A stretch of DNA of 64,000 nucleotides from Paucibacter sp. B2R-40. Its GTDB lineage: Bacteria; Pseudomonadota; Gammaproteobacteria; Burkholderiales; Burkholderiaceae_C. Location of the stretch: assembly GCF_025717555.1 (NCBI RefSeq), contig NZ_JAJIRP010000003.1, positions 434,001 to 498,000 on the forward strand, read 5' to 3'. A program made the position numbers and the translations under genes. The notes below the pieces were generated by a model. It was not told where the DNA came from, searched no databases, and worked only from the letters and a program-made list of their open reading frames with translations. Within the stretch, counting starts at the first letter, position 1, and each line of letters starts with the position of its first letter. Below are positions 24,772 to 33,361 of this stretch, one piece after another.

Positions 24772-25764
24772 TCACTCGCCCGGCAGCACCCGAACGGACG
24801 CGGCCAAGGTCGCCACCAAGGCCGGCGGCAAGGTCCAAGGCTGAGCGCGCGGCAACGCGTAGTCACTGCAGGCCGTGCAGGCGGCCGAGGCAGCGGCGAC
24901 CGCCCAGCGCAAATGCTGCTCGGCGGCGGCGGCGGGTTCACGCATCAAACTCAAGAGCAATCCCGCTGCCGCAGCGTCACCCAGACCAAGCGCGGTCTTG
25001 CCCGCAATATCCTCCAATTGGGGAGGTGCTGCATGCCACTCGCCGGTCCCGCTGTACAGCGTGGCACCTTGAGCGCCACGCGTCAGCAAGACATAAGCAC
25101 CCGAATTCCAGGCCCCGATTTGGGCCAGACCGGAGTGATAGTCGGCCGTGCGAAACAAGCCGCACAGCTCGGCGGGAGAGACCTTGATGACATCGGCCAA
25201 GCGACACATGCGCTCCAGACAGTCGTCATAGCGCGAATCCATCAGGGTCCGAAAGCCCGGCGCATAGGAAATCTTTTTGCCCTCCGCCTTGAGTCCCGCG
25301 GCCAAGGCTTCAAGTCGCTGGGCCTGTGGTTGGCGCACCAGGCCGAGGCCGCCAAAATGAGCCCAGCGCAAGGCCTTGACCCAGCCGGCGGGCAAACCCT
25401 CGGGCCGAAAGTGCAGGTCGGCGCTATCGGCGCCGACAAAAAACCCCTCGGGCGCCTCATCGGCGTCAATGAAATTCAGCAGTGGCGGACGCGGGAGTTG
25501 CTGCAAATAACGCAGATCCAGGTGGGCGTCGGTGCAGGCCGCCCAAACTTCTTGCCCGAACAGGTCCGAGCTGATCGCGCCGCCATAGGCGCTGAGCTCG
25601 CCCAAGCTGGACATCGCCATCGCGACTTGCCAAGGCGAGCCCGCGCAGGCGCTGCGCCAGCTCCCGTCGCCTGCTCTGACGAGGTCGATGCGGACCTCGC
25701 CAAAGGAAACAAAACGAGCCAGGTCGGGGTGCAACATGGTGGGGGTGTAGGGCATGCCCGCCAT
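24772..25764 (-). CDS. PfkB-family carbohydrate kinase
   Basis: The 330-residue ribokinase-fold protein opens with FVSFGEVRIDLVRAG and shows a substrate glycine region (AGSPWQVAMAMSSLGE), the mid-domain ADVIKVSPAELCGLF, and ALGLGDAAAAGLLL. The last motif keeps the catalytic Asp, though the usual GAGD is GLGD. It phosphorylates a sugar or nucleoside that I cannot identify. A second possible ATG is at 25755. It abuts convergent paaY and is divergent from the giant gene. Confidence 0.82.
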   Translation of the reverse strand: MAGMPYTPTMLHPDLARFVSFGEVRIDLVRAGDGSWRSACAGSPWQVAMAMSSLGELSAYGGAISSDLFGQEVWAACTDAHLDLRYLQQLPRPPLLNFIDADEAPEGFFVGADSADLHFRPEGLPAGWVKALRWAHFGGLGLVRQPQAQRLEALAAGLKAEGKKISYAPGFRTLMDSRYDDCLERMCRLADVIKVSPAELCGLFRTADYHSGLAQIGAWNSGAYVLLTRGAQGATLYSGTGEWHAAPPQLEDIAGKTALGLGDAAAAGLLLSLMREPAAAAEQHLRWAVAAASAACTACSDYALPRAQPWTLPPALVATLAASVRVLPGE

Positions 25765-26051
25765 TCAAACATCACGAGCCGAACAGCGCAATGCTTGCAA
25801 TGCTTTTCGGCCGAGTAGGCCCGGCGCCACAACGAAAGAACTGACCCGTTTTTACCGTCCAGTTCTGGCGTTTGCATCAAATGGACCGCCCAGCGCGCTG
25901 AACTAGTCCAAAGAGCAGTTCATTTCCGGCGACCACCAAGGCCCCGGCTTACCTACATTTATCGGACAAGATAAACAAAGCTTTAGCCGTATCTTCCAGA
26001 CTTTCGAATTTTTCTGGGCCGGCTGGGTCTGTCTTGATTCCGGAGTTCAAG
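25765..26051 (+). promoter_or_regulatory. 287-bp upstream region of the giant octapeptide-repeat gene
   Basis: This gap separates the kinase gene from the giant gene and is AT-richer than its surroundings. It holds a tandem 9-mer GCAATGCTT twice (25788-25805), an imperfect inverted repeat of GAACTG and CAGTTC about 16 bp apart (near 25837-25866), and a perfect hyphenated palindrome TTTATC-N6-GATAAA (25958-25975). A ribosome-binding GGAG (26042-26045) precedes the ATG. I cannot assign a specific promoter or regulator. Confidence 0.5.
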
Positions 26052-29000
26052 ATGTCGTTCATATCAACCCTGCCGCCCGAACAAATTGCCAAGCTGTCCA
26101 CCAAGGCGATAGCCGCATTGACCAGCAGCGATTGGCAGGACTTCAGCGCCAGCCAAATGGCCGCCTTGACGGCGATCCAAATCAGCGCCATCACGGCACG
26201 CGGCTGGATGAGCATTGCCGCCGAGCAATTTGTCTCAGTGAGCGTTGACGCGGTAGCGGGCCTCAATGCGCATTCGATGCCACTGGTGCCGATCAAGCTG
26301 CTTGGCGCCATGGAGCAGGATCAGATTGCCGCGCTGAGCGCGATCGGCCTGCGCGCCCTGACCAGTGCCCAAGCGCCTGCGCTCAGGCCCGACTGGCTGG
26401 AGGCCTTGGCCTCGCCGCAGGTTCAGGCCATCTCGAACGCAGCGCTTACGGCGCTGGACACCGGTCAGATTGCGGGTTTGCATGCGCAGACGGTGCAGAG
26501 TTTTTCAGAAAATCAAATCCGCGTCCTGAAAACCCAACAGATCGCCGCTTTCGAGGACGAGGGTCTGGGTGCGCTCGCTTCCAATCATATGCGCGCCTTG
26601 GTCAGCGCGCAGGTGCATGCCCTGAGCAGCTCCCAAATCAACGCGCTCAGCGCGGCTCAACTCGACGGTTTGACCAGCAACCAACTGGGTCTGCTGAGCA
26701 CGGTGCAGTTCAATGCCTTGAACGCGGACGACCTGCAAGGCCTTGAGACTTCGCAGCTGCGTGGCCTGGGCAGCCGGCATATAGCCCAACTCGATGCGAG
26801 CGAATTGGGCAGCCTGAGTGAGGCCCAGCTTGCCTCATTCAGCTCGGCTCAAGCAGCCGGCTTGAACAGCCTGGCTTTGAGCGGCTTGTCCAGCCTGCAA
26901 CTGCAAGCATTGTCGAGCTCGGCGCTGGCCGGCTTGAGCGGCACCGCTTTGCAAGCACTCAGTCCGGAACAGATTGCCGCGCTCGACCCGGCGCAGATCA
27001 AAGCCCTCAGCACCGCCGCTCTGCGCGGGCTGTCGGATCTTGCGCTGGCCGCCTTCAATACCGAACAAATGCCGGCCTTCAGCGCCAGCCAGCTGAATGC
27101 CTTCAGCACCCATCAATTGCAGCAATTGGGTGAGGATCAGATTGCGGCCTTGAGTACCGCTGCTTTGCGTGGCCTGGCCGGCACCAGCGTCGCCGCATTG
27201 ACCGAATCGCAGCTCGACGCTTTGCTGGTTGAGCAGGTGCGGGCCTTCAGCACACAGGCCGTGCGCGCGCTCCAAATTACCCAGCTGAACCAGCTCGACT
27301 CGGATCAGTTGGGTGCGCTCACCGGCCTTCAAATCAGCGCCTTGAGCAGCACGCAAGTGGCCGGCCTGGACGCGGGCATCGTGGGCAGCTTGTCCAGCGG
27401 CCAATTGATGTCGCTCAGCTCCAGCCAATTTGCGCGCCTGAGCAATGCTGCGATTGCCGACCTCACACCCGATCAAGTGGGCTTGCTGAGCAGCAAGCAG
27501 CTGATGGGCTTGAGCAGTACGCAGTTCGCGCTGATGAGCAGCAGTGATGTGGCAGCCTTGTCGCTGGGCAGCTTGCGCAGTCTGAGCAGCGGGCAGCTGG
27601 CCGGGATGAGCTCGGACGACTTTGAGGCCCTCAGCGCAAAGCAATTCCAGGCCATCAGCGCCAGTCAATTGAAGGGCTTGGGCGAGGGCTTGATCGACAA
27701 GCTGGGCATTGAGCAAATCGCCGCCATCAGCTCGGCGCAAATGGGTGGGTTCAGCGCCGCTCAGCTGCACCAGCTCAGCCTGGAACAAATCGCCGTACTC
27801 AGCACCCAAGCGATCAGCGGCCTGGGCAGTGCCGGGGCAAGTGCGCTGAGCTCCAGCCAAGTGGCCGCCTTGGACGCGGATCAGTTTCGCGCCCTTTCGG
27901 GCTCGGCCATCAACGCCTTGACCAGCGGCGTGATGGTCGGCTTGACGCCGGCCCAGTTGGCCGCCCTCTCCCCGACGCAAATCGGCTTGCTCGGCACGGC
28001 TCAGATCAGCGCCTTGGGGGCAGCTCAGATCGACGCACTCAGCGCGCCTCAAGTCGCGGCATTGACCTCGAATCAGTTCAGCCGACTTGGCGCCGAAGCC
28101 ATCGCGTCCCTCAACGCGGATCAACTCGCCGCCATCACGGCGCGCCAAATTGCCGGCGCCACGCCCACGCAGATCGGCCTGCTCAGCCCGGAGCAGTTCC
28201 GCTTCATCAGCCCGGCGGCCTTGGGCGCCTTGAACAACAGTCAAGTCGCCGCTTTGAGTGCGGCCGACATCGCGGCGCTGAGTGGGACGCAGTTCGCCGG
28301 TCTCGGCCCCGCCCAGTTGCGGGCCTTGCCCGATGCGGTCCTGGTGTCGTTGAGCATCGACCAATTGGGGGGCTTGAGCGCAACCCAAGCCGCCGGCCTG
28401 CAAGCTCATCAAATTCAAACCCTGCTGCCCGATCAACTGGCTGCCTTCAGCAGCGTGGCCTTGCGCGCGCTCGGCGCCGGTGCAGCGCAGGCTTTGAGCG
28501 CCGACCAACTCCGTGCGCTTGACCCGAATCAAATTGCATCGCTCTCCAAATTGGCCTTGACCAGCTTGGACGCGAGCCAGCTCCAGGTGCTCAACATCGA
28601 CCAATGGGCGGCGCTTGGGCCCGCCAACGTGGCGGCGCTGACGCTGACACAAATCGCTTCGCTGGGTGCTGCACAAGCCTCGATGCTGACGCCGGCCGAG
28701 CTGGCTGCGCTCAGCGCCAGCCAGTTCAATCGCCTCAGCGCTGCCGCCGTACCAGGCCTGAGCGTCGAGCAAATTGAAGCACTTGGCAGCCGCCAACTGC
28801 AGGCCATGAGCAGCACACAGCTGCAAGCGCTCTCACATCTGCAGGTCCAGGCCCTGAGTCCCTCGGCCATCGGCAGTCTGTCGCTGGATGCCGTCAAAGT
28901 ACTCAGCCTGGACGCCCTGACGCCGACCCAGTTGGCCGGCCTGCGGGCGGTGCAAATTCAGTCGCTCGGCGATGCGGCGATTGCCACTTTCGGCAATACC

Positions 29001-32000
29001 CAAGTTGCTGGATTGAGCGCCGTCCAGGTCTCCGGCCTGACCGCCCATCAAATAGACCTGCTCTCACCCGGCCAGATCGCGGCCATCAGCACCGACGCGA
29101 TTGGCGCGCTGTCGGCCAAAGCGGCGCAGGCCATGTCTGCCGCGCAAGTCGATAGCCTGAGCGCCGCGCAGATGCAAATGCTGGGCACCCAGGCGACCCA
29201 TGCGTGGTCAACCGCACAATGGGCAGGCATCAGCAGCGCCCAAGCGGCCGCACTGAATACGGCCACAGTTGCCATCCTCAGCACCGCTCAATTCAACAGT
29301 TTGGCAGCCGACGCGGTGCTGGCCTTGAGCTCGAGCCAAGTGCTCAGCCTGTCCACCGCCGCACTGCGCAGCCTCGGCAGCCAGCAACTGGGCAAACTCA
29401 GCGATGAGCAATGGGGTGAACTCAGTTCGCGCCAGCTGAACGCGCTGGCTACGGCACAGATCTCCCATCTCAGCGTCGCGCAAGCCAGCGCCCTGGATGC
29501 CGCGGCCCTGAGTGGCTTGAGTACCCAGCAATGGCGTGCCATGGGCACGCAGCAACTGCAGGGCTTTGAGACCGAGTCCGTGCGCGCACTCAGCGGCAGC
29601 TCATTGATCAGTTTGTCGCAGGCGCAGGTTCAAGCGCTGTCGACGCTGCAAATTCAAGCCCTGTCCAACGTGGCGCTGCGCCAACTCGACAGCACCCAGA
29701 TGCAGGAATTCAGCGGCACGCAGATTCAAGCTTTCAGCAGCGGACAAATCGGCGCGTTGGCGGCCAATGTCTGGCCCTCCATGAACGCCGCCCTGCCCTC
29801 GCTGAGCACGGCCCAAGTCGCCGGCCTGACGAACAACCAGATTCAAGCCTTCAGCAGCGCCAACATCCTGGCGCTGAACACCGCGCAGGTCGCGGCCTTG
29901 AGCGCGAGCACGATTGCGGCCTTGTCGACGTCGGCGATCAAACTGCTGAGCAACGCCCATATTGCCGCCTTGACGACCGAGCAAGCGCAAGCCCTCACCA
30001 GCAGCGAGCTGGGCGTGATGAACACGGCTCAGTTGGATGTTTTTTCAAGCCAGCAAGTCTATGCACTGCAGCCCTCGGCCATCGCCGCCTTGAGCAGCGC
30101 GCAATTGACCGCTTTGGTGATGAATGACCTGGCAGCCGTCAGCACGGCCACTTTCGCCAGCCTCAGCAGCATGGCCCTGGCCCAGATCACCGCTCAAGCC
30201 CGGCCCGAGATCAGCAATGCCCAACTGGCGGCGATGACCTCGACCCAGGCGCCCGGACTCAGCACCGTCCAGCTGAGCAGCCTGACGACCGGCCAAGTGG
30301 AAGCGCTGTCGGTGGCGGCCCTGAATGGCCTGGGCAGCGCACAGTTCGCGGCCTTCAGCAGCGCACAGCTGTTGGCGCTGAGCTCGGCTCAAATCGAAAC
30401 GCTCGACAAAAACGACTTGCCCTTCCTGGGTGCGGACACCATGCAGGGGCTCAAAGCCAATCAGATTCAAGCCCTGAGCGCGGCGCAAGTCGTGCTGCTG
30501 AGCAGCGCACAGCTGCAGGCCATCAATCCGGACAGTTTGCGCGCCTTGACCACGGCCGCACTGGATGCGATCAGCGCCGAGAATTTCGGCGCCTTGAGAC
30601 CGGCCCAAATTGCCGCCCTGGGCGAAGCGCAGATCGCTGTGCTTGACGCAGGGCAGCTGCATGCCATGTCGGCCTCGGCCTTGCAGGCCCTCAATGTGGG
30701 CCAACTCAATTTGCTGACGACGCAGCAATTGCAAGGCCTCAGCGGTAGTCAGATCAACGCTTTTGCGCCGCAGCAATTGGTGGCCTTGAGCACGGCCGCA
30801 ATTGGCTCCTTGAGCCTGGATCAATTGAAAGGGCTGAGCCCCACCCATATGGGCGAGTTGTCTGCGACACAGCTGGCTGCCATCGCACCGTTCAGACTCA
30901 GCGAGCTGCCCACCACCCATATAGCCGCGCTCAGCGCCAGCCAATTGGCCGGGCTGACGGTGCCGCAAGTCTTGACGCTCACCGACGCGCAGTTCGGCGC
31001 GCTCAGTGCAGCGCAAATACCCGGCATCAGCGTCGACGCATTGCGTGCGATGGCGCCGGCGCAATTTGGCGAGTTCCGTCCCGACCAGTTTGCGGCCTTG
31101 ACCTCGGCCCAAGTTGTCGCCTTGTCACCGGCCGATTTGTCTCATCTGAGCGCCTCGCACATCACGGCGATGGAGCCCTTGCAATGGAAGGCCTTGCTGC
31201 CCACCCAGGTGGCTGCACTGAGCGCATCACAGGTAGAGGCGATTGGCCCGAGCCACCTGGCCTTGTTCGCGCCGACACAAATTGCCGCACTCAACGTCAC
31301 CGCTGTCGCGGCGCTTTCGGGCGTTCAGCTCAATGGGCTGCCCGTTGCCGACCTTGCTGCTTTCACGCAAAGCCAGATCTCGGCGCTGAGCACCCAACAG
31401 CTGGCAACTTTGGACATGCCGCATGCGGCCGCGTTTACCGGCACACAGCGCGAAGCCATGACAGCGGCCCAACTGGGCGTGCTGGCGGCCGCCTCGCCTT
31501 TGATGCTGGATCTGAGCGGCATCGGTGTCGGCGAAGCTGCCGGTATTCATACCCTTGGCGTGGAAAACGGCGTCACCTTCGACATCAATGCCACCGGCCA
31601 CGCTTCGCAAATCGGTTGGGCCGGAGCCCACAACGGCATGCTGGCCTTGGACCGCAATGGCAATGGCCAGATTGACAACGGCAGCGAGCTGTTTGGCACC
31701 GCGACCAAGCTGAACAATGGTCATCTGGCCGACAACGGCTTTCAGGCGCTGGCTCAGCTGGACAGCAATCACGACGGCAAGATTTCGGCCGCCGACGCCG
31801 AGTTCAATCATCTGCAGGTCTGGGTTGGCGCCAGCAACACCAGCAAAGGCCAACTGCATAGCCTGGCCGAGTTGGGCATCGTCGAGTTGGACCTCAACGC
31901 CAATCACCAAGAAGTGATGCAAAACGGCAATCTTGTCGGCATGGCGTCCAGCTTCAAGTCTGCGGACGGCGCCAAGCATGAGTTGGTCGACGTCTGGTTT

Positions 32001-32216
32001 GCGCAGGCACCCACGTCCAGCAACACGGCAAACTCAGGTCCGACTCTGCATGACTTGCTGCAAGGCCCCTCGACCAATCTTTTGACCGACAAGGCGGCGC
32101 CGACCGAATCGCCTGCAGCCGAGCCGGCTCAACACGGCCTGGCTCATCATGCGATGTGGCGCAGCGAGCAACTGCAAGACGAGCTTGAGCGCAACCGGAG
32201 CCATTTGCTGATTTGA
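26052..32216 (+). CDS. Giant octapeptide-repeat protein with C-terminal calcium-loop domain
   Basis: The 2054-residue protein starts at an ATG with GGAG six bases upstream; a TTG at 26034 is less likely. Residues 8-1811 are a near-perfect array of eight-residue units, consensus [S/T/D/N/G]-x-x-Q-[I/L/V/F]-x-[A/G]-L. Residues 1812-2054 form a separate domain with [19 protein letters not shown] (Asp1867) and [16 protein letters not shown] (Asp1904), two EF-hand-like Ca loops common near the C-termini of large type I-secreted proteins and adhesins. There is no cysteine and no N-terminal signal peptide. Surface or secreted location is inference; no secretion genes are adjacent. Proline tolerated at unit position 2 (SPEQ, TPAQ, DPAQ) suggests each unit is a short helix with a Ser/Thr N-cap. 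Confidence 0.9.
26073..31484 (+). repeat. Tandem 24-nt coding repeat array (224 octads plus two short units)
   Basis: Hand parsing gives 224 consecutive eight-codon units that stay in phase over 5.4 kb. The exceptions are one five-codon unit (SLDAL, 28905-28919) and one seven-codon unit (NAALPSL, 29784-29804). Leu at position 8 and Gln at position 4 dominate; positions 2, 3 and 6 vary. At DNA level adjacent units differ in many synonymous and variable positions, so this is not a recent expansion of one 24-mer. Confidence 0.9.
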
Positions 32217-32231
32217 CCCGCTTGAAGCGGG
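32217..32231. repeat. Short palindrome between the giant gene and moaA
   Basis: CCCGCTTGAAGCGGG has 7-bp arms around one central base and starts right after the giant gene's stop. It has no T tract, so it is not a typical terminator; it could be a weak hairpin or protein site. Confidence 0.4.
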
Positions 32232-32245
32232 CACAATGCAGCGCT

Positions 32246-33361
32246 ATGTCAGACAAGGTGATTCCCCTCCTCGACCAGCGTCGCTTGCAGCCAAGGCCGG
32301 CCATCCCGGCGCAGTCTGTGCCTCCAAGCGGCTTGTTGGTCGACGCCCTGGGCCGGCCCTTGCGCGATCTGCGCATTTCGGTCACCGACCGCTGCAATTT
32401 CCGCTGCAGCTACTGCATGCCCAAGCAGGTGTTTGACAAGCACTACGAGTTCTTGCCGCACAGCGACCTGCTCAGCTTCGAAGAGATCAGCCGCTTGGCG
32501 CGCGTCTTTGTCGCCCACGGCGTGCAAAAACTGCGCCTGACCGGCGGCGAGCCGCTGCTGCGCCGACATATCGAGGCGCTGATCGAAATGCTCAGCGAGA
32601 TCCGCACGCCCGAGGGCAAGCCGCTGGACCTGACCCTGACCACCAATGGCTCGCTGCTGGCCCGCAAGGCCGCTTCTTTGAAGGCGGCCGGACTGCAGCG
32701 CGTGACGGTCAGCCTGGACGGGCTCGACGACGCGGTGTTCCAGCGTATGAACGATGTCGGCTTCCCCGTCGCCGACGTGCTGGCCGGCATAGACGCAGCC
32801 CAAGCGGCCGGCCTGGGCCCCATCAAGGTCAATATGGTGGTCAAGCGCGGCGTCAATGACCAAGAGATTTTGCCGATGGCGCGGCATTTTCGCGGCTGCG
32901 GCGTCAGCTTGCGCTTCATCGAATACATGGATGTCGGCGCCACCAACGGTTGGCGCATGGACGAGGTGCTGCCGTCCAGTGCGGTGCTGGCGCGGCTGCG
33001 CGAAGAATTTGAGCTGCAGCCGCTGTCGGCCAGCGTCGCGGGCGAAACGGCCGAACGCTGGGGCTACGCCGACGGCCAGGGCGAGATCGGGCTGATCTCC
33101 AGCGTCACGCAAGCCTTTTGCGGCGACTGCAACCGCGCACGCCTGTCCACCGAGGGCAAGCTCTACACCTGTCTATTCGCTCACAGCGGCCATGATTTGC
33201 GTGCGCTGCTGCGCAGCGAGGCCAGCGACGCCGAACTCAGTGGCGCGCTGGGCTTGCTCTGGGGCTCGCGAAGTGATCGCTATTCACAACTGCGCGCCAG
33301 TGGCGCTGCCGAGCTTGGCCCGGGCGAGCGACGGGTTGAAATGCACTACATCGGAGGCTGA
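32246..33361 (+). CDS. moaA: GTP 3',8-cyclase MoaA
   Basis: The 371-residue radical SAM enzyme starts molybdenum cofactor synthesis from GTP. The N-terminal cluster is in [12 protein letters not shown] (Cys50, Cys54, Cys57), and a second cluster uses CGDCNRARL plus the Cys of GKLYTCLF. It ends with the essential Gly-Gly (MHYIGG). [12 protein letters not shown] is also canonical. I chose the ATG at 32246 ([10 protein letters not shown]); the frame extends to 32213 inside the giant gene. First of a plus-strand run through the second moeA. Confidence 0.95.

What the first reader, a model, noticed from the sequence alone, without database searches (positions are those of the whole stretch)
26052..32216. 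A 2054-residue protein built of about 224 tandem octapeptides ending in a calcium-loop domain
Seen: from residue 8 to 1811 the protein is an almost uninterrupted run of eight-residue units with Leu fixed at position 8, a branched or aliphatic residue at 5, Gln favoured at 4, Ser/Thr/Asp/Asn/Gly at 1 and Pro tolerated at 2. The last 243 residues hold two EF-hand-like loops. There is no cysteine and no N-terminal signal. Known: the terminal domain type and lack of cysteine are common in type I-secreted giant proteins. Inference: a Ser/Thr-capped mini-helix every eight residues could stack into a very long solenoid, perhaps a surface or secreted fibre. I know no named family for this array and no described structure with this period.
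Basis: partly seen in the sequence, partly recalled or inferred. Interest (0 to 1): 0.9.

Follow-up and report, generated by a model that had tools for sequence, protein, structure and literature searches.

The report
Secreted octapeptide solenoid with silenced calcium module
A bacterium related to Paucibacter and Roseateles encodes a 2054-residue protein made almost wholly of eight-residue units, predicted to be mini-helices, that ends in a calcium-binding type of domain lacking the residue where its known relative cuts itself; many relatives lie near a protein-export pump and a sugar-adding enzyme, which suggests a little-studied class of secreted fibres.

Summary
In detail: residues 8-1811 form a strict octapeptide array, with no cysteine and a calcium-loop C-terminal domain. 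The array is not unnamed: it belongs to Pfam PF20080 (ALTTAQ_rpt, E 1.1e-181), and a 120-residue protein with the same octad is in the PDB (9ZEM, HeliScrew4). My searches of the held library found no paper naming either. AlphaFold2 gives a mini-helix about every eight residues (240 aa, pLDDT 86).
New here: (1) the C-terminal domain is a homologue of the FrpC self-processing module with Ser in place of the scissile Asp; Ser/Thr stands there in 45 of 45 array-linked modules read. (2) In 150 sampled genomes of the family, a distinct LssB-type exporter goes with strong module hits (28 of 29 exporter genomes; 20 of 29 within 30 kb), and an OGT-like GT41 gene lies within 1 kb of it in 24 of 29. (3) In four genomes the first 1814 codons align without a gap, dN/dS 0.11-0.15. 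The window gene itself is an orphan beside moaA.
Best reading: a type I-secreted, calcium-nucleated mini-helical solenoid, perhaps O-glycosylated. Secretion and glycosylation are inferred, not shown.

The parts
26042..26045 (+). GGAG ribosome-binding site, 6 nt before the ATG
   Evidence: same spacing in window, L029, L030, L031
26052..32216 (+). ALTTAQ-repeat protein gene, 2054 aa plus stop
26073..31484 (+). octapeptide array, residues 8-1811, about 225 units
   Evidence: mini-helix model of residues 560-799
28905..28919 (+). phase break, 5-residue unit at residues 952-956; the more distant relatives L106-L108 carry 3 more residues here, which makes a full octad
29760..29804 (+). phase break, residues 1237-1251
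31494..31499 (+). Ser1815-Pro1816, the position of the Asp-Pro bond cleaved in the FrpC self-processing module
31497..32003 (+). self-processing-module-like domain, residues 1816-1984
   Evidence: phmmer to 6SJW E 1.2e-27, 3.7e-26 with the whole protein
31650..31688 (+). EF-hand-like loop 1, residues 1867-1879 (FrpC 462-474 equivalent)
   Evidence: alignment; A1
31761..31796 (+). EF-hand-like loop 2, residues 1904-1915 (FrpC 499-511 equivalent)
   Evidence: alignment; A1
32004..32213 (+). C-terminal tail ending [12 protein letters not shown], candidate type I secretion signal
   Evidence: shared end motif in 46 ALTTAQ tails
24772..25764 (-). divergent pfkB-family kinase gene, neighbour also in L029-L031
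32246..33361 (+). moaA, its in-frame ATG about 30 nt after the ALTTAQ stop codon, neighbour also in L029-L031
   Evidence: ATG 32246 read from the junction

Best explanation
The gene encodes a secreted solenoid protein of the ALTTAQ_rpt family. Each octad is an N-capped mini-helix (Ser/Thr cap, then Gln, an aliphatic residue and Leu facing in); about 225 of them stack into one long regular solenoid. The chain is most likely exported unfolded, C-terminus first, by the LssB-type type I system encoded elsewhere in the genome, guided by an uncleaved C-terminal tail that ends in (P/L)-L-I. Outside, the C-terminal self-processing-module-like domain binds calcium, folds first and anchors the end of the chain, taking the place that the glycine-rich beta-roll has in ordinary RTX proteins; it does not cut itself because the scissile Asp is Ser. 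The OGT-like GT41 enzyme beside the exporter may glycosylate Ser/Thr of the array in the cytosol before export. Shown: array, family, domain homology, missing Asp, conserved length, gene linkage of relatives. Predicted: mini-helix fold. Inferred: secretion, order of folding, glycosylation, role as surface or released fibre.
For: Family and period. Fold: residues 560-799 predicted with pLDDT 86.2, pTM 0.77 and 28 helices of 4-9 residues, most spaced 8 apart; the last 13 octads likewise, at about 75-91 pLDDT; PDB 9ZEM matches the array in sequence at E 3.4e-19. C-terminal domain: 169 residues aligned to 6SJW, E 1.2e-27. Ser/Thr before the Pro in 45 of 45 ALTTAQ-linked domains read, Asp in 0; Asp in 8 of 29 other domains. 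Linkage: 29 of 150 sampled family genomes carry an ABC protein at least 58% identical to the own-genome LssB protein; 28 of the 29 have a strong domain hit, 20 of 29 within 30 kb on one contig; Fisher table 28/1/3/118, p 7e-26, not corrected for kinship. GT41 (61% identical or more) within 1 kb of that ABC gene in 24 of 29, and a distant GT41 (37-38%) at 3.2-8.1 kb in three more, G067, G046, G139 (my subtraction); its nearest solved relatives are XcOGT (E 9.7e-81) and the 110 kDa O-GlcNAc transferase (E 1.4e-79). LssB model 790 bits against a cut-off of 693; HlyD model 296 against 209. End motif: last residue I/L/V in 45 of 46, penultimate L in 42 of 46. Window-type copy at 60% identity or more in 7 of 18 genus genomes, all 7 with the exporter, which 13 of 18 have.
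Against: The window copy is an orphan: between pfkB and moaA, as in three named records; three more distant relatives (L106-L108) have no T1SS match in the fetched 11.5 kb. Of five other genomes whose flanks I fetched (G236, G258, G212, G133, G218), only G258 had the exporter in those flanks. Two of four calcium sites of the module are degenerate in the window clade. The model of the module has block pLDDT 23-67 and is not usable. No GGxGxDxxx repeats, the usual type I hallmark. The TolC-like protein on C9 is below the family cut-off (60 against 225 bits), though two others in the genome are above it. Distant GT41 genes are common (67 of 150 genomes have a match), so only the adjacency and the close group speak for a link; two of the adjacent GT41 matches (G062, G143) hold one in-frame TGA. 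No secretion or glycosylation data. Linkage counts come from related genomes.
Confidence: 0.6

Rival explanations
1. It is a cytoplasmic solenoid scaffold, not secreted; the calcium module and tail are relics, and the gene serves the moaA neighbourhood (molybdenum cofactor) or another cell process.
For: Orphan position about 30 nt before moaA on the same strand, kept in four genomes; two of four calcium sites degenerate.
Against: Shares domain order, module and end motif with paralogues in the own genome, of which those on C9 lie near type I genes; relatives L106-L108 have no moaA or pfkB match in the fetched stretch; all 7 genus genomes with this copy have the exporter.
Confidence: 0.2
2. The module is still self-processing, by another chemistry that uses the Ser/Thr in place of Asp, so the array is released or linked after export.
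For: Ser/Thr in 45 of 45 ALTTAQ domains, stricter than the 64% Ser/Thr at octad position 1 of the window protein; Pro kept in all 45; the Asp equivalent to D579 of FrpC kept in all seven aligned.
Against: The published mechanism needs the Asp side chain to attack its own carbonyl and form the anhydride (passages of PMC7078468); Ser/Thr is also simply an octad cap, and it is common in non-ALTTAQ domains (14 of 29).
Confidence: 0.08
3. The array is an LRR-like or otherwise known beta-type solenoid.
For: Weak hits to LRR proteins (E 1.5e-4 and above) and LRR_EndoS in Pfam, above its whole-protein cut-off.
Against: Prediction is all-helical without strands; no single LRR_EndoS stretch passes on its own; ALTTAQ_rpt scores far higher.
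Confidence: 0.03

Closest known systems
Pfam PF20080 ALTTAQ_rpt
   Same: Octad array scores 588.6 bits against a cut-off of 26.4, 42 stretches
   Different: Window array is strongly diverged with fixed unit number in four genomes; the paralogue L009:16524-19415 has 408-bp tandem copies. The family gives a name; I saw no function for it
PDB 9ZEM, HeliScrew4 (probably a designed protein, my inference from its name)
   Same: Same octad pattern over 104 residues, E 3.4e-19
   Different: 120 residues against about 1800; no C-terminal module; no paper found; coordinates not compared
FrpC self-processing module (6SJW, 6SJX)
   Same: 169-residue homology, two calcium loops, both Trp of the pair and the D579 equivalent kept (residue numbers by my own count from P415)
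   Different: Scissile Asp is Ser, D478 equivalent is Thr, two calcium sites degenerate, module is C-terminal and not internal
Type I-secreted RTX proteins
   Same: Giant, Cys-free, calcium-loop C-terminal part, exporter genes near paralogues
   Different: No GGxGxDxxx repeats; helical octads in place of beta-roll
O-GlcNAc transferase type GT41 (XcOGT)
   Same: Enzyme beside the exporter matches XcOGT at E 9.7e-81
   Different: Here linked to a secretion operon; substrate unknown

Membership tests
Pfam PF20080 ALTTAQ_rpt | profile score above curated cut-off | tested here: met
   588.6 bits, cut-off 26.4
FrpC-type self-processing module | sequence homology over the whole module | tested here: met
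   169 residues to 6SJW, E 1.2e-27
FrpC-type self-processing module | Asp-Pro scissile bond | tested here: not met
   Ser-Pro here; Ser/Thr in 45 of 45 ALTTAQ-linked domains read
FrpC-type self-processing module | four calcium sites | tested here: not met
   sites 462-474 and 499-511 kept; 419-424 and 521-532 degenerate; the three paralogues in L009 and L010 keep the loop signatures
FrpC-type self-processing module | calcium-dependent cleavage and linkage | not testable with these tools
   needs purified protein
RTX protein | GGxGxDxxx nonapeptide repeats | tested here: not met
   0 in the window protein
Type I secretion substrate | exporter genes beside the gene | tested here: not met
   window copy orphan; paralogues on C9 and many relatives linked
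Type I secretion substrate | conserved uncleaved C-terminal signal | tested here: inconclusive
   conserved end motif in 46 tails; function untested
Type I secretion substrate | found outside the cell by this route | not testable with these tools
   no proteomics
HeliScrew4 fold (9ZEM) | same three-dimensional fold | not tested
   sequence match only; 9ZEM not among the 50 Foldseek rows listed of 349; pdb_via unavailable

The most novel reading that the evidence does not exclude
ALTTAQ proteins, an LssB-type exporter and an OGT-like GT41 enzyme form one system: the enzyme decorates Ser/Thr helix caps of the unfolded octad chain in the cytosol, the exporter sends it out, and a cleavage-silent self-processing module folds on calcium to start a glycosylated mini-helical fibre whose unit number is fixed by selection.
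Probability: 0.3. Interest if true: 0.8.

Novelty: new variant of a known kind. Interest (0 to 1): 0.6.

Why it matters
It gives a named repeat family, on which I found no paper, a testable role. It links an O-GlcNAc-transferase-like enzyme to type I secretion, shows a consistent replacement of the catalytic Asp in a module whose anhydride chemistry is used for protein ligation (abstracts), and offers a natural long solenoid built from what may be one of the shortest helical repeat units (that last comparison is recalled, not searched).

Tried and rejected
Pfam hits CAAP1 and LRR_EndoS (and in paralogues Phage_TAC_7, SapC, SnoaL_3): some pass the whole-protein cut-off, but 0 stretches pass on their own; taken as repetition effects. 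XopAW in NCBIfam (20.6 bits, cut-off 120): calcium-loop match only. Mesothelin as the best Foldseek row (TM 0.33, E 2.7e-5) and the viral library (TM to the query at most 0.34 in the 50 rows shown): too low for homology. S-layer protein NpdA: the two passages seen of PMC10765051 do not speak of octads. Alignment A2 of shifted array segments was too gappy (328 columns) and was not folded; A4 was misregistered and replaced by A5. The joint model of the end of the array and the module failed for the module. Paper searches without hits: ALTTAQ, PF20080, HeliScrew, type I secretion with O-GlcNAc terms, eight-residue repeat with solenoid and helical from 2015 on, octapeptide repeat with type I secretion. 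Octapeptide/type I/Burkholderiales gave 18 papers, listing seen; HMW1C with type I secretion gave 3, listing seen. PMC12538545: passages seen.

Full report
What is there. The frame 26052-32216 encodes 2054 residues without Cys. Residues 8-1811 repeat every eight residues: lag-8 autocorrelation of Leu/Phe 0.56 against at most 0.07 in 1000 shuffles, still 0.54 at lag 40. The unit is S/T - x - x - Q - aliphatic - x - A/G - L. Apart from two phase breaks the period is kept throughout.

Family. Pfam places it in PF20080 ALTTAQ_rpt at E 1.1e-181; NCBIfam gives no match up to E 0.01. The family matches in 81 of 299 sampled genomes of the same family and 28 of 398 of the phylum, and in 1 of 14 control genomes, Caulobacter vibrioides. 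My searches found no paper that names it in the held library. The only three close named relatives found are two Paucibacter genomes and a Roseateles MAG, so the window is a relative of these.

Fold. AlphaFold2 on residues 560-799 with three orthologues gives mean pLDDT 86.2, pTM 0.77, and 28 helices of 4-9 residues, most spaced eight apart. The solved protein 9ZEM, HeliScrew4, aligns over 104 residues at E 3.4e-19; from its name I take it to be a design, and I have not compared coordinates. Foldseek finds no good match (best row mesothelin, TM 0.33). No coordinates were at hand to measure rise or handedness.

C-terminal domain. Residues 1816-1984 match the FrpC self-processing module 6SJW at E 1.2e-27. 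In FrpC the Asp414-Pro415 bond breaks after calcium-induced folding, and the released Asp forms an anhydride (PMC7078468, abstract and passages seen). Here the pair is Ser-Pro. Over the loci read, 45 of 45 domains preceded by octads have Ser (24) or Thr (21) before the Pro; of 29 domains without octads 8 have Asp, 14 Ser/Thr, 7 other. An earlier, stricter pattern gave 43 of 43. Neither set is random or free of kinship: the 45 come from the window genome, three named relatives, the 30 best module loci and other fetched stretches; the 29 are 6 from viral contigs and 23 from 20 stretches that I picked (18 places with weaker hits and two strong hits of G076). The octad class rests on a pattern count in the 400 residues upstream. 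The window clade keeps two of four calcium sites; the three paralogues in L009 and L010 keep the loop signatures.

Linkage. The own genome holds paralogue frames at L009:9938-16150, L009:16524-19415 (cut by the contig end), L010:1-2562 (in pieces, cut by the contig start, partly masked) and L010:3325-4824, with stops in the stretch upstream of it. On C9 an operon-like run GT41 - LssB ABC - HlyD, then a TolC-like gene, lies 16 kb away. In a sample of 150 genomes of the family, 29 carry an ABC protein at least 58% identical (the next lower is 46%); 28 of 29 also have a strong module hit (E at most 1e-70, a threshold that I set after seeing the list). Of the 29, 20 have one within 30 kb, 1 at 62 kb, 1 at 437 kb, 6 on another contig, 1 none (G043, 80% complete). 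Three of 31 strong-module genomes lack this ABC (G012, G084, G138). G076 holds strong hits of both kinds, with and without octads. In a separate set of five genomes whose flanks I fetched, only G258 showed the exporter in those flanks. GT41 lies within 1 kb of the ABC gene in 24 of 29. The enzyme resembles O-GlcNAc transferases, so Ser/Thr of the array (341 of residues 1-1811) are candidate targets; only 6 N-x-S/T sites exist in the protein.

The window copy. It lies between pfkB and moaA also in L029, L030 and L031. Codons 1-1814 align without a gap in the four genomes at 76-82% identity, dN/dS 0.11-0.15, with dS about 0.9-1.2, near saturation. Two more distant relatives (53-54% identical, L106, L107) keep the array length to within 3 residues, those 3 filling the phase break at 952; a third (48%, L108) has these 3 and two extra runs of 80 residues, ten whole octads each. 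In contrast the paralogue L009:16524-19415 has a 408-bp unit (17 octads) repeated 4.8 times at DNA level. So the units are individually conserved, the larger length changes seen are whole octads, and the gene is under selection.

Mechanism. The most economical reading is export by the type I system in trans and C-terminal, calcium-driven folding that starts the solenoid. The end motif (last residue I/L/V in 45 of 46 tails, L before it in 42 of 46) is a plausible signal. That all 7 genus genomes with the window-type copy also have the exporter, found in 13 of 18, fits but is a small sample; three of the 7 (G299, G300, G303) are probably the same genomes as L030, L029 and L031, by identity and frame length. 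Secretion, glycosylation and fibre role are inferences.

Noticed in passing
L009:2-9040 and L027:5388-10100 (own genome C48): Giant RTX gene on the minus strand (33 HemolysinCabind stretches, at least 3013 aa in L009, probably continuing into the open frame of L027) between an ALTTAQ paralogue and a second type I ABC/TolC set; a possible further type I substrate.
   Followed up: partly
L079, L080, L081, L082, L083, L084: Self-processing-module-like domains with Ser-Pro on viral-collection contigs, without octads; in five of six the domain starts within 182 residues of the frame's end.
   Followed up: partly
the 29 non-octad domains: 12 of 14 Ser/Thr-Pro domains start within 240 residues of the end of the readable frame, 7 of 8 Asp-Pro domains more than 300 from it (some frames are cut by the stretch end), as if the non-Asp form were the terminal cap.
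   Followed up: no
L104 and L105 (G076): Strong module hits without octads upstream, one with Cys-Pro; the module may cap other secreted proteins.
   Followed up: no
L010:4986-18312 (own genome C9): Between the ALTTAQ genes and the exporter lie glycosyltransferase-like, DegT aminotransferase, AMP-ligase, ketoacyl-synthase, reductase and methyltransferase genes, perhaps sugar or lipid modification.
   Followed up: partly
window 32217-32248: Inverted repeat CCCGCTTGAAGCGGG right after the stop; a block GAAGCGGGCACAATGCAGCGCTATG before moaA is identical in four genomes.
   Followed up: no
G012:C70, G067:C33, G046:C70, G139:C2: Distant GT41 genes (37-38% identical) lie near ALTTAQ-type module or exporter genes here, as if the enzyme had been exchanged.
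   Followed up: no
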